Shown here: positions 12 to 3,383 of the stretch, one piece after another
How positions within the stretch are numbered: the stretch's first letter is position 1
How the letters are laid out: each line of letters begins with the position of its first letter
NCBI GenBank assembly: GCA_029258925.1
Contig: JAPDJV010000055.1
Span: 1-45,866, forward strand
Direction: 5' to 3'
Source of the DNA: Thermoproteota archaeon
GTDB lineage: Archaea > Thermoproteota > Thermoprotei_A > EX4484-217-1 > JAPDJV01
DNA length: 45,866 nucleotides
The notes under the pieces: model-generated
The model's database searches: none
Seen by the model: only the letters and a program-made list of their open reading frames with translations
What the model was told of the DNA's origin: nothing
Translations under genes and position numbers: made by a program

Positions 12-419
12 GTAACAACAAAAAAGAATTAAAGAGGATTTGAAAGATGAGATATTTATTTTCTTTTCTTATCAAGTAATAACAAAAAAGAATTGAAAGA
101 TGCGAACATTGGGATGGCTCCAAGCGGGATGCTCAACGTAATAACAAAAAAGAATTGAAAGGCAACAGTGAAGTTACCGTACTTTGCCACTATCTCTTTT
201 AGTAATAACAAAAAAGAATTGAAAGATAATTTGTGGAGGAATTTTTGTAGCGTTTGGATTTATTATGTAATAACAAAAAAGAATTGAAAGTGAAGCTTCT
301 TCATGATGTTATTAAGAGAAGAGCAAAAATAGGTAATAACAAAAAAGAATTGAAAGCATGTTCCATATTCCTGAGTCCACTTCGATAAGTCCACAGTAAT
401 AACAAAAAAGAATTGAAAG
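12..419 (+). CRISPR. CRISPR array, leader-distal part
   Basis: Six perfect or near-perfect copies of a 24-nt repeat start at 12, 76, 138, 202, 267, 333 and 396; the copy at 12 is degenerate and the other six are identical. Each begins GTAATAACA, continues with an A-run and ends GAATTGAAAG. Spacers are 38-42 nt (100-137, 162-201, 226-266, 291-332, 357-395), giving a 62-66 nt period. The ATTGAAAG 3' end matches the 8-nt crRNA tag known for crenarchaeal type I and III systems, so transcription is inferred to run on the plus strand with the leader outside the left edge. The copy at 12-34 has T-to-C and a lost G near its 3' end, and GGATTTGAAAG follows at 36-46. No cas gene is visible in the window, and I saw no match between spacers and the rest of the window. 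Confidence 0.97.
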
Positions 420-451: not shown

Positions 452-475
452 GTAGATGACAATATTAATTGGTGG
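452..475 (+). repeat. possible degenerate terminal CRISPR repeat
   Basis: After the last perfect repeat there are 32 nt and then GTAGATGACAATATTAATTG, which aligns to the repeat with one inserted base (GTA, then AT-ACA, then AATTG). A degenerate last repeat is normal at the leader-distal end. The 32-nt interval is shorter than the other spacers (38-42), so this may be coincidence. The first ATG of the downstream reading frame (456) lies inside it. Confidence 0.4.
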
Positions 476-1757
476 CTGTCGAATTATGCTTGGGTGTAAT
501 GTAGTGGTTGGGATTAGTGTTTTTGACGCGTATCGTAGTGTGTGTAGTGTGCTTGGTAGGTTGTGTCCTAGGCTAGTGCCTAGTCCTTTATGGGGTTATA
601 GTTTGTCTTCGTTGGCGAGGTTGAGTCCAGTGTTAGCGGAAGTGATGTGTGAGGATTGTGGTGGAGTGGTGGGGGAGCTACTTGGGTACTGGAAGAGTAT
701 ACCTAGAGGGGGTGCGTGTAGTGTTTGTGGTGCTCTTGGTGCTAGAGATGTTGATGAGGAGTGGGTTTACGTAGTGTATGAGGGTGGGAAGCCGTTGCCG
801 CGGTTACCCGATATGAGAGATCCGATGAGTAGGGCTAGGTATAGTGGGGAAGCAATACTTTTAGGGGTGCGCTTGCTTTGCGGAAAATGTCACTTGTCGA
901 AACATCAGGGCTATGCTAGGGTAACCGGGAAGGGCAGGGAGGCTTTGGAGCATTTAGCGAGGGTTAACGATGTTAGTGTGGGTGAGGCGGAGAGGCTTGT
1001 AAAGAAGGCGTTTGAAGTGTGGCGTGAACTCAGTAAAATAGATAGCTGGAAAATAAGAGTCTGTGAGCTGCCTGGTTTAAGAGAGGATTTGAGGCGGAGA
1101 ACTGAAAAATTCTTAAATGAGATGTTCGGTCTTGGCTATAGTATTTTTCGAGGCTGGTTCTGGTATATGAGTAAAGATAATGTTGTGAACGTGGAGAAGA
1201 TGGCTATTAGCGAGACTATTGCCTTGTTGGAGTCCTTGAGTCCTGCTGAAAACATTATCAAGGCTCTCGTTAACGAGGTGGGGTCTAGGCTAAAGGAAAA
1301 CAACGTACATGTTCTCGAGAGGGAATTAAGCTACGCTCTGAATTTACAGATGGAGGACGTTAATAAAATACTTAAGGCTATCTCATCTCCGGAAGAACAC
1401 GCTTTCACACTGCTCGCAATCTCCAGATTATTTGTAGGGAAATGGATGGTTTTCGCCAAGGAAGAACACCTTAACACTATTATCCCTGAAATCGTCGAGA
1501 AGTTAAGGGAGGAAAGACTTGACTACGAGTTGAAGACTCCTGCTTCGAGAAGAAGAGGAGACTTGTATCCCGTCATGGTATATGTTCCAAGCTACTTAGC
1601 AACCAGCCTGGTTTCTCGAGTCGGCGGAATAGTGAAAATGGTTGCCGAGGAACTAGGCTTACGTAAACCCATATATTTTAAGCCAGATGTTTTCACGGAG
1701 AAAAGCATCTACAGCGGTAAGAGTACTATTAAACCCTACATATACCTACTTAAATAA
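456..1757 (+). CDS. zinc-finger (HNH-like) and DUF1917-like two-domain protein
   Basis: A 433-residue frame with two recognisable parts. Residues 65-150 carry CxxC (65/68), CxxC (88/91) and a CGKCHLSKHQGYA segment (C142, C145, H146, H150), which looks like an HNH-type zinc-binding fold. The last 110 residues (GKW at 328-330, then KPIYFKPDVFT and a final IKPYIY) resemble the DUF1917/Bles03 family, whose biochemical role is not firmly known. The middle is helical. The first ATG (456) sits in a possible terminal CRISPR repeat, so translation may instead begin at the in-frame ATG at 486 or a GTG after it. The first 500 bases are strikingly G+T rich on this strand and the rest is A-richer, so the two halves may have different origins. 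Adjacency to the CRISPR array is seen; a functional link is only inference. Confidence 0.6.
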   Translation: MTILIGGCRIMLGCNVVVGISVFDAYRSVCSVLGRLCPRLVPSPLWGYSLSSLARLSPVLAEVMCEDCGGVVGELLGYWKSIPRGGACSVCGALGARDVDEEWVYVVYEGGKPLPRLPDMRDPMSRARYSGEAILLGVRLLCGKCHLSKHQGYARVTGKGREALEHLARVNDVSVGEAERLVKKAFEVWRELSKIDSWKIRVCELPGLREDLRRRTEKFLNEMFGLGYSIFRGWFWYMSKDNVVNVEKMAISETIALLESLSPAENIIKALVNEVGSRLKENNVHVLERELSYALNLQMEDVNKILKAISSPEEHAFTLLAISRLFVGKWMVFAKEEHLNTIIPEIVEKLREERLDYELKTPASRRRGDLYPVMVYVPSYLATSLVSRVGGIVKMVAEELGLRKPIYFKPDVFTEKSIYSGKSTIKPYIYLLK

Positions 1758-1922: not shown

Positions 1923-2190
1923 GTGTATGTGTGGGTGCCGAGGACTATCCGGGTTAGAGAGGAGATCTACGGTATTTTGGAGAAGATGAAGAGGAGGATG
2001 AAGGCTAGGAGTTTTGATGAGGTTATTGGGAGACTGTTGTTGAAGGAGTTGGGGATACCTGGGGACATGTTCGGTGTTGACCGGGTAAGATATCTCCGTT
2101 TACGGGGAGGGATAGGATGGAGGATAGGGGATGGTGGTATACGATGCTTATGCGTGGATCGAGTATTTCCGTGGCTCTGGGAAGGGCTTA
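1923..2190 (+). pseudogene. vapB: VapB-type antitoxin, frameshifted
   Basis: The first 50 residues (RTIRVREEIYGILEKMK, then RSFDEVIGRLL) match the short ribbon-helix-helix-like VapB antitoxins that precede archaeal vapC genes. GTG at 1935 is a likely start, because homologues begin close to PRTIRVRE; GTG 1923 is also possible. After FGVDR (about 2082) the open frame turns into sequence unlike the family. Adding one G to the GGG run at 2083-2085 restores GKISPF and DRMEDR, the usual tail, and this restored frame runs to a TAG near 2190. The antitoxin therefore seems to have lost one base. The partner toxin gene overlaps its end and is also damaged. Confidence 0.6.
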
Positions 2191-2530
2191 GAGTATGTGA
2201 AATGCTTGGGAGGGGGGATATGCTCCGTCAGTAGTGTTCGCTGGAATTGCAGGGAAGTATTTGATGGAGGGGGTAGGTATTGAGGAGACTAGGGTTAGGC
2301 TGCTCTTCATCGAGGCTAAGACCCGGATAGTCCCCGTGGACTCTGAGCTTGCTCTTAGAGCGGGGGAAACATTCCTCGAACTATGTAAGGTGGCGGGGGA
2401 GAGGGGGCTGAGGACTCCTAGCCTAGTTGATGCCATAGTCTATGCGACCGCGAGAATAGTGGGCGAAGACTTGGTGACAGGCGATAGATTGTTCAAAGAC
2501 TTGCCTCTGGTTGCGTATATTGGAGACTAG
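2131..2530 (+). pseudogene. vapC: VapC PIN-domain toxin, frameshifted and catalytically damaged
   Basis: VapC toxins are PIN-fold RNases with three to four acidic residues that bind metal. ATG 2131 opens VVYDAYAWIEYF, with the first conserved Asp at residue 5. That frame fails after about 28 codons. The downstream frame, starting near YAPSVVFAG at 2219, carries KYLMEG, AKTRIVPVD, SLVDAIVYATA (second Asp) and VTGDRLFKDLP (third Asp) and ends normally at 2530. Removing one G from the run at 2212-2217 joins the two halves into one about 132-residue protein of normal length. Apart from the frameshift, the conserved Glu of the usual LAEIA motif reads Gly (VFAGIAGKY), so the toxin would probably be inactive even if the indel were a sequence error. 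Confidence 0.8.
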
Positions 2531-2614: not shown

Positions 2615-3022
2615 CTACACGTCTTCTAGTGTTCCTGCCTGCTCCACCATCTCCCTTATTTCCCCAACTATTTCCTCCCCCACGAGAACCCTCCCGTAAA
2701 TTAATGTTTCTCTTATGAACTGGTTTCCCCTCCTACATGCCTCAACTACTTCGCTTGGAGTGTAAGCAGATATTTCGACATTCACGTTTCCCAAAGTTTT
2801 CAGCGCGAACCTCTCCCCCCTCCCAACACTATCCACTATTAAGACCACGTCTATGTCGCTTAAACCCATTACAAACCTCCCCTTAGCAACTGAGCCACCT
2901 ATTATTATTGCTAGAGGCCTGTATTCTTCTAGTAGCTCAGCTATTAGTCTGCAGAATTCTTCTCTTAACTCGGCTAGGCAGGGATTATCTCTTACAATAC
3001 TACTTAATTTCTCCGAGAACAT
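2615..3022 (-). CDS. mntA: MNT-type minimal nucleotidyltransferase antitoxin
   Basis: A 135-residue protein starting at ATG 3022 (MFSEKLSSIV). The frame stays open to 3178, but the upstream part is antisense-like sequence inside the HEPN gene. The signature GGSVAKG followed by SDIDVVLIV is the GSx(10)DxD motif of the DNA polymerase beta-like nucleotidyltransferase fold, and VNVEIS could supply the third carboxylate. Characterised MntA antitoxins neutralise a HEPN RNase (HepT) by adding AMP to it. The start overlaps the end of the HEPN gene by 23 nt, the usual arrangement of a HEPN-MNT operon. Decayed copies of its 3' end occur at 4507-4590 and 7705-7785, so related modules have been inserted and lost here more than once. 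Confidence 0.85.
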   Translation of the reverse strand: MFSEKLSSIVRDNPCLAELREEFCRLIAELLEEYRPLAIIIGGSVAKGRFVMGLSDIDVVLIVDSVGRGERFALKTLGNVNVEISAYTPSEVVEACRRGNQFIRETLIYGRVLVGEEIVGEIREMVEQAGTLEDV

Positions 3023-3383
3023 AGTCCACCACTTCCCTCGCAGCTTCCAATGCTTCCTCCGCATCCCTCCTACGATAGTGTTTGTGCGGTGCTCCATAGG
3101 GCCACGCGTTCGGATACCTTGATGGTACGTAGTGTCTGTCAAGCAGCTCCCCCTTCTCCACGAGGCTTCTGGGAGCATTAATTCTCCTCAACAATTCGCC
3201 GACGCTGTGGATCTCATCGTATCTTCTCAAAGCGTGGATCATTAAGGCTTTAACAGCTTTCTCCGCTGCCTGCTGAGATAGAAAGCATACCTTACTATAC
3301 TTACCCTCCCTGAACAGTATTTCAGCTGCAGACAGGTCGTCAAGTGCCTCGTCAAGCCAGTCCCTAAACCTCTCATAAGCCAT
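3000..3383 (-). CDS. hepT: HEPN-domain toxin partner of MNT
   Basis: 127 residues, all-helical HEPN family: WLDEALDDLSAAEILF, then CFLSQQAAEKAVKALM, then HSVGELLRRI. This is the pattern of the PF05168-like HEPN proteins found upstream of minimal nucleotidyltransferases. A candidate RX4HX site (RYDEIHSV) is present, but the position taken by Tyr in the RX4HXY motif of characterised HepT toxins is Val here. AMP addition at that residue would thus not be possible and the RNase activity is uncertain. It is the first gene of a two-gene unit, translationally coupled to the downstream MNT gene by a 23-nt overlap. Confidence 0.85.
   Translation of the reverse strand: MAYERFRDWLDEALDDLSAAEILFREGKYSKVCFLSQQAAEKAVKALMIHALRRYDEIHSVGELLRRINAPRSLVEKGELLDRHYVPSRYPNAWPYGAPHKHYRRRDAEEALEAAREVVDYVLGEIK

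What the first reader, a model, noticed from the sequence alone, without database searches (positions are those of the whole stretch)
456..1757. Zinc-finger and DUF1917-like protein abutting the CRISPR array
The domain pair (HNH-like cysteine cluster plus DUF1917-like C-terminus) is uncommon and its first ATG lies in the last repeat-like sequence. The two halves differ in base composition. A nuclease-like finger fused to a possible phosphate-handling domain beside a CRISPR array is a candidate for an unrecognised defence-linked protein, although adjacency may be chance.
Basis: partly seen in the sequence, partly recalled or inferred. Interest (0 to 1): 0.55.

Follow-up and report, generated by a model that had tools for sequence, protein, structure and literature searches.

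The report
HNH-like BLES03 fusion in archaeal defence islands
This is a real but rare archaeal gene that joins a zinc-finger domain related to DNA-cutting enzymes to a domain resembling a human protein of unknown role; its relatives often lie near varied virus-defence genes rather than beside CRISPR arrays, so it is a candidate for an undescribed defence protein.

Summary
The ORF and both domains are real. The N-terminal half is an HNH-type zinc domain (phrog_5200, E 4.5e-15). The C-terminal half is a BLES03 domain (PF08939, formerly DUF1917; 27.5 bits, cut-off 23.1); its predicted fold matches human BLES03 (Z 9.0). Relatives suggest that translation starts downstream of ATG456, so 'start codon in the last repeat' is doubtful. 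CRISPR adjacency does not recur: no array within 9 kb in 28 relative loci, 16 of them readable about that far on both sides. The patchy family (14 of 229 class genomes by my sorting) often lies near other defence systems: Hma-type methylase/ATPase, type I restriction, type III Cas genes. In 5 of 6 complete genomes a marker is within 25 kb (Fisher P 7e-5; markers partly chosen post hoc). An exonuclease-like gene adjoins 7 of 20 loci. The HNH general-base histidine is Asp in 13 of 14 readable members; the four BLES03 pocket residues are intact in 9 of 11. Most likely: a defence-island protein that binds nucleic acid through a non-canonical HNH domain and acts through the BLES03 phosphate pocket. 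Function is untested.

The parts
76..419 (+). CRISPR array: six identical repeats GTAATAACAAAAAAGAATTGAAAG, spacing 62-66; a degenerate seventh copy near 12-35; the contig starts inside or at the array
   Evidence: a 22-nt core of the repeat occurs nowhere else in the held genome with up to 2 mismatches
456..1757 (+). longest ORF, 433 aa, HNH-like + BLES03 fusion
   Evidence: family alignment
486..1757 (+). more likely gene extent (ATG486 with GGTGG upstream; GTG504 with GGTG upstream also possible)
   Evidence: most relatives align from residue 21-24; start contexts; inferred
636..1085 (+). HNH-type zinc domain (borders approximate): C88-x2-C91 and C142-x2-C145, H146/H150 of CHLSKH; the general-base position is D100 (DEEW) instead of His
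   Evidence: phrog_5200; alignment with phage and plasmid HNH proteins; residue tables
1128..1754 (+). BLES03 (PF08939, ex DUF1917) domain with K329, K360, Y376, K409 equivalent to K128, K159, Y175, K204 of human BLES03
   Evidence: profile match to 1ztp E 4.7e-4; fold Z 9.0; residues
1923..2530 (+). VapB-like antitoxin (1923-2234) followed by a PIN-toxin-like frame (2234-2530); neighbour, not a conserved partner
   Evidence: (PF02697) for VapB; PIN reading is by eye
2615..3383 (-). HEPN (3000-3383) and nucleotidyltransferase (2615-3178) genes, a probable toxin-antitoxin pair; neighbour
   Evidence: PF05168, PF01909

Best explanation
A patchily inherited archaeal defence-island protein. The HNH-fold zinc domain most likely binds nucleic acid, with cleavage lost or changed because the general-base histidine is Asp. 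The fused BLES03 domain (fold shared by eIF4E and phosphothreonine lyases) supplies a conserved Lys-Lys-Tyr-Lys pocket that binds, or eliminates, a phosphate group on a protein or nucleotide ligand. In some genomes it works with an exonuclease-like protein encoded next door. Shown: domains, predicted fold, residue pattern, patchiness, neighbourhoods. Inferred: nucleic-acid binding, the phosphate ligand, and the role in defence.
For: Domains; model with pLDDT 82, pTM 0.81; C-domain model matches 1ztp Z 9.0, eIF4E Z 8.2, LxmY lyase chain 9dk1_B Z 7.8 at 2.5 A over 105 residues. Pocket residues all four kept in 9 of 11 readable members of the window's branch. HNH base His replaced by Asp in 13 of 14. 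Defence systems near: Hma-type methylase and ATPase in L028 and L036, type I RM in L033, type III Cas10/Csm3-like genes in L031. A marker lies within 25 kb in 5 of 6 complete genomes, Fisher P 7e-5. Adjacent exonuclease-like gene in 7 of 20 loci; all 3 class genomes holding both genes have them adjacent. Patchy: 14 of 229 class genomes, in 7 families (my sorting).
Against: Markers and the 25-kb cut-off were partly chosen after seeing neighbours; for the two genomes not used for choosing (G215, G051) P is 0.0045 with the first marker set and 0.011 once Cas10 is added. G303's nearest marker is 976 kb away. Weak N6-methylase hits (E above 1e-10) were left out as markers. No PADLOC model matches the protein or the two exonuclease-like proteins tested. 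The partner gene is not seen in 13 of 20 loci, several on short contigs, nor anywhere in this genome. Of 9 uninterrupted copies, L032 has lost CHxxKH, L030 the pocket Tyr, L037 most motifs. No experiment.
Confidence: 0.42

Rival explanations
1. An active HNH nuclease of restriction or homing type, with Asp serving in place of His, and BLES03 as DNA- or modification-recognition module.
For: Zinc cysteines and CHxxKH kept in 7 of 9 uninterrupted copies; the relatives outside archaea found here are phage and plasmid HNH proteins, the two collections searched; defence context.
Against: General-base His is Asp in 13 of 14 readable members, Ala in L037, E/N/K in three short relatives; L032 has also lost CHxxKH.
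Confidence: 0.2
2. A phosphoserine/phosphothreonine lyase acting on host or viral proteins or on peptides, as proposed for archaeal BLES03 by Khater and Mohanty (PMC4159009); the zinc domain only targets it.
For: K-K-Y-K pocket with spacing 31/16/33 against 31/16/29 in BLES03; fold match to LxmY lyase.
Against: No protein kinase among the 40 neighbour proteins that I chose for Pfam scans, against the kinase-rich synteny claimed in that paper; lyase activity of BLES03 itself rests on docking and simulation there; eIF4E shares the fold without activity.
Confidence: 0.18
3. A selfish or decaying gene without a conserved role.
For: Of 14 class loci, G045 has an in-frame stop, G116 a frame break, G043 an IS607-type insertion and no BLES03 part found, G128 several stops.
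Against: Nine uninterrupted copies exist (38-41% identical to the window protein for the seven apart from the window and L037; 28% for L037); 7 of 9 keep zinc ligands and CHxxKH, 7 of 9 keep all four pocket residues.
Confidence: 0.1
4. A housekeeping nucleic-acid or translation protein.
For: A diverged branch confined here to family f8 lies in neighbourhoods shared between genomes.
Against: That branch has lost the HNH histidines and two of the pocket lysines; the window's branch is rare and has no neighbour shared by more than a few loci.
Confidence: 0.07

Closest known systems
BLES03 / C11orf68 (PF08939, PDB 1ztp)
   Same: Pfam match above cut-off, predicted fold Z 9.0, all four proposed pocket residues present
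   Different: Human BLES03 has no HNH-type zinc domain (recalled); here the domain is fused to one, in archaea, often near defence genes
phrog_5200 HNH endonucleases of phages and plasmids
   Same: CxxC...CxxC, a conserved Glu after the base position, LC-x2-CH-x3-H and the following helical region align (four phage and plasmid proteins aligned)
   Different: The four phage and plasmid proteins keep the first His (CHE); the archaeal family has Asp, and carries BLES03
SpvC/OspF and LanY (LxmY, CaoY) phosphothreonine lyases
   Same: Fold of the C-domain (LxmY Z 7.8) and a Lys-Lys-Tyr pattern like that of SpvC in PMC4159009; CaoY keeps Lys219 and Tyr236 but uses an Arg (PMC9486802, passages)
   Different: No sequence match, no kinase partner seen among scanned neighbours, activity untested
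Hma / DUF499-centred BREX-related systems, type I RM, type III CRISPR-Cas
   Same: Physical neighbours of several family members
   Different: I saw no description of these systems with this protein: in PMC12839542 'bles03' has 0 occurrences (where 12 of 29 places were read)

Membership tests
Bles03 (PF08939) | score above Pfam's curated cut-off | tested here: met
   27.5 vs 23.1 bits
Bles03 (PF08939) | BLES03/eIF4E-like fold | tested here: met
   predicted model: 1ztp Z 9.0, rmsd 3.6 over 134 residues; Foldseek E 1.6e-4
Bles03 (PF08939) | conserved K128, K159, Y175, K204 | tested here: met
   K329, K360, Y376, K409 in the window protein; all four in 9 of 11 readable members of its branch, window included
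HNH (His-Me finger) nuclease | zinc-binding cysteine pairs and CHxxKH | tested here: met
HNH (His-Me finger) nuclease | general-base histidine of the first motif | tested here: not met
   Asp100 where four phage and plasmid relatives have His; that this His is the general base is recalled
HNH (His-Me finger) nuclease | DNA cleavage | not testable with these tools
   needs purified protein
Phosphothreonine lyase | catalytic Lys, phosphate-binding Lys and Tyr in the fold | tested here: met
   by equivalence to BLES03 residues in PMC4159009
Phosphothreonine lyase | proton-donating His (H106 of SpvC) | tested here: inconclusive
   PMC4159009 assigns Lys204 of BLES03 this role; K409 matches it, no His tested
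Phosphothreonine lyase | kinase partner or phosphate elimination | tested here: inconclusive
   no kinase among 40 scanned neighbours, which were a chosen part of all neighbours; activity not testable
CRISPR-associated protein | recurrent adjacency to CRISPR arrays | tested here: not met
   no array within 9 kb in 28 relative loci, 16 readable at least 8.7 kb on both sides; one (L029) has an array 9.2 kb away
Known defence protein | match to a PADLOC model | tested here: not met
   0 families
eIF4E cap-binding protein | tryptophan sandwich for m7G | not tested
   fold match only

The most novel reading that the evidence does not exclude
A new archaeal anti-virus protein family in which a catalytically altered HNH domain senses foreign nucleic acid and a BLES03-type phosphate lyase domain is the effector, in some genomes paired with an exonuclease; this would be the first defence system to use eliminylation-type chemistry that I know of (from recall).
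Probability: 0.15. Interest if true: 0.85.

Novelty: new variant of a known kind. Interest (0 to 1): 0.5.

Why it matters
I found no demonstrated function for BLES03 (the 2014 lyase proposal in PMC4159009 is computational; searches, open-access library only, listings read). Finding it fused to an HNH-type zinc domain near archaeal defence genes gives the orphan domain a testable setting and adds a candidate defence protein that PADLOC 2.0.0 does not model.

Tried and rejected
CRISPR linkage: rejected as family trait. Start codon inside the last repeat: judged unlikely from relatives' N-termini and a shuffle test. Viral carriers of the fusion: two scans of viral contigs confirmed none, and tblastn of phages and plasmids found no place covering 80% of the query; the rows listed end at query residue 247 or before, i.e. 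the HNH half (20 of 36 plasmid and 20 of 219 phage records listed). PDB sequence search with the single protein found nothing convincing. Papers, open-access library only: 'DUF1917' 0 papers; 'eIF4E-like'+archaea+HNH 0; 'Bles03' 10 papers listed, one with the term in its title; 'HNH' has 0 occurrences in that paper. Exonuclease as obligatory partner: rejected; it is beside 7 of 20 loci and occurs in 13 other class genomes without an HNH-BLES03 match (16 genomes hold it, after leaving out 4 whose only hits lie in ~800-aa frames that look like DNA polymerase B). Of those 13 I looked at the neighbourhoods of 10 (G149, G150, G212, G077, G087, G213, G211, G214, G206, G216); none had an HNH gene of this family. 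A primase-like neighbour (L029, L032): no Pfam match, not pursued.

Rows dropped or merged: L068 = L090, L039 = L119, and L064-L067 = L027, L030, L034, L033 are the same records and were counted once; L094 and L095 were left out of the 20 as doubtful relatives; weak N6-methylase hits (E above 1e-10: G000 three, G116 and G097 one each, G032, G303) were not used as markers; only the 6 single-contig genomes entered the distance test, the drafts did not. The sorting of the 21 matching class genomes into 14 and 7 is mine; for G198 and G201 it rests on search scores only.

Full report
What is in the sequence. The window starts in a short CRISPR array, six identical 24-nt repeats at 76-419 with a degenerate copy near 12-35. 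A 22-nt core of the repeat is found nowhere else in this 1.75-Mb, 56-contig genome, with up to two mismatches. The 433-aa ORF at 456-1757 follows on the same strand.

Start codon. Most relatives align from residue 21-24, and L029, L031 and L032 have their first possible Met one or two residues before that point. In-frame alternatives in the window are ATG486 (GGTGG, 10 nt between) and GTG504 (GGTG, 7 nt between). The stretch around ATG456 resembles the repeat no better than shuffled sequence (P 0.19). The gene therefore probably does not start in the array; this is inference.

Domains. HMM scans give phrog_5200, HNH endonuclease, E 4.5e-15, and Pfam Bles03 at 27.5 bits against a cut-off of 23.1; NCBIfam and PADLOC give nothing. 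Pfam's HNH model is missed by the window protein; it stays below its cut-off in relatives (best L088, 20.9 vs 21.4 bits) and in the three plasmid proteins scanned. That DUF1917 is the older name of PF08939 is recalled; a BFVD entry named DUF1917 is the top viral fold match. A profile of eight relatives finds human BLES03 1ztp at E 4.7e-4. AlphaFold2 with four sequences gives pLDDT 82 and pTM 0.81. The C-domain alone (pLDDT 77.9) matches 1ztp with Z 9.0, eIF4E with Z 8.2 and the lexapeptide lyase chain LxmY (9dk1_B) with Z 7.8, rmsd 2.5 over 105 residues. The tool warns that Z under 8 may mean only a common arrangement. The HNH half was not searched by fold on its own.

Active-site reading. In PMC4159009 (abstract, passages and sections 11, 13, 14 read) K128, K159, Y175 and K204 of BLES03 are equated with phosphothreonine-lyase residues. 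They correspond to K329, K360, Y376 and K409 here. All four are kept in 9 of 11 readable domains of the window's branch; L030 has Gln for Tyr, and the diverged L037 keeps only the last Lys. In the diverged f8 branch (L038, L040-L043, L045, L046) the first Lys is Ala and the second Arg in 7 of 7, while the last Lys remains in L040 and L042. In the HNH half, four phage and plasmid relatives have CHE; here it is DEEW. Asp is at that place in 13 of 14 readable members of the branch, Ala in L037; three short HNH-only relatives have E, N or K. So canonical HNH catalysis is unlikely, though not excluded. That the missing His is the general base is recalled knowledge of HNH enzymes.

Base composition. 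GC skew drops from 0.53 to 0.13 between the halves. Because the same fusion is present in nine uninterrupted copies (counting the window and diverged L037), this is not evidence of a recent fusion; I did not test its cause.

Distribution. 21 of 229 genomes of the class match (11 of the 122 that are at least 90% complete and at most 5% contaminated). By my sorting 14 belong to the branch of the window, in seven families, and 7 to the diverged branch only. Eight of the 14 are uninterrupted full-length fusions (G000, G097, G215, G188, G032, G051, G158 and diverged G147). The others are broken or cut off: an in-frame stop (G045), a frame break (G116), an IS607-type TnpA/TnpB pair inside the gene (G043), several stops (G128), HNH half only (G127), contig end (G144). 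A full-length copy also occurs in another class (G303). The Pfam Bles03 hits in the class (6 of 226 genomes) and in a phylum sample (3 of 398) are all members of this fusion family; the Pfam model misses other members.

CRISPR test. With a simple array finder that detects the window's own array, none of 28 relative loci has an array within 9 kb; L029 has one 9.2 kb away. Sixteen of the 28 are readable at least 8.7 kb on both sides, 12 are cut shorter; the 28 include the diverged branch and doubtful L094 and L095. The only Cas1 hit of this genome lies on another contig. The CRISPR neighbour is therefore not a family trait.

Defence-island test. Neighbours include Hma-type methylase and DUF499-type ATPase (L028, L036), type I RM genes hsdR, hsdS and hsdM (L033) and Cas10- and Csm3-like genes (L031). 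PMC12839542 (passages) describes DUF499-centred systems as BREX-related defence. For six complete genomes I compared the distance to the nearest DUF1156 methylase, strong N6-methylase (E up to 1e-10) or Cas10 hit with random positions: 5 of 6 lie within 25 kb (Fisher P 7e-5; chance of five or more at that cut-off 2e-6). Families and cut-off were picked after seeing some neighbours. The two genomes not used for choosing, G215 and G051, give P 0.0045 with the first marker set and 0.011 with Cas10 added. G303 is a clear exception (976 kb). No control with another gene family was run.

Partner gene. An exonuclease-like gene (an invariant D-x-E; Pfam similarity to DNA polymerase B exonuclease domains below cut-off, E 0.0099 and 0.0011) lies directly beside the HNH gene in 7 of 20 loci: G116, G097, G303, G461, two loci of G448, and G144. 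The G303 protein was found by its own profile and is linked to the others mainly through the broken copies of G144 and the D-x-E alignment. In the class the family occurs in 16 genomes (after leaving out 4 with polymerase-like hits only); the 3 that also hold the HNH gene have the two adjacent. The window's genome has no match.

Conclusion. Its link to CRISPR is chance or, at most, one case of a wider defence-island habit. The best-supported reading is a patchy, often decayed, defence-island protein whose working site is the BLES03 pocket. The biochemical step is inferred.

Noticed in passing
L036 8851-10804 (G043): IS607-type TnpA (resolvase) and TnpB genes inserted within the HNH gene; HNH pieces on both sides, BLES03 half not found.
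   Followed up: partly
L033 5769-6440, L027 6252-6662, L088 8621-9397, L090 10806-11390, L091 3870-4316, L092 7346-7789, L119 11919-13398: Exonuclease-like family adjacent to HNH genes and, in other class genomes, without one; the members scanned pass no Pfam cut-off and match no PADLOC model.
   Followed up: partly
L038, L040-L043, L045, L046: Diverged f8 branch of the family with neighbours shared between genomes (by eye an aminoacyl-tRNA-synthetase-like and an NAD-dependent-oxidoreductase-like gene) that has lost the HNH histidines and two pocket lysines.
   Followed up: partly
L029 8601-9389 and L032 8082-8933: Neighbour of 262-283 aa shared by two genomes of one genus, next to the HNH-BLES03 gene, no Pfam match; a DxD followed by a HLHVY motif looks primase-like by eye.
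   Followed up: no
window 2119-2530: PIN-toxin-like sequence seems split between two frames downstream of the VapB-like gene (read by eye).
   Followed up: no
window 12-35: The repeat nearest the contig start is degenerate while the one nearest the gene is intact, which is odd if the gene side is the trailer end (orientation recalled from other archaeal repeats).
   Followed up: no
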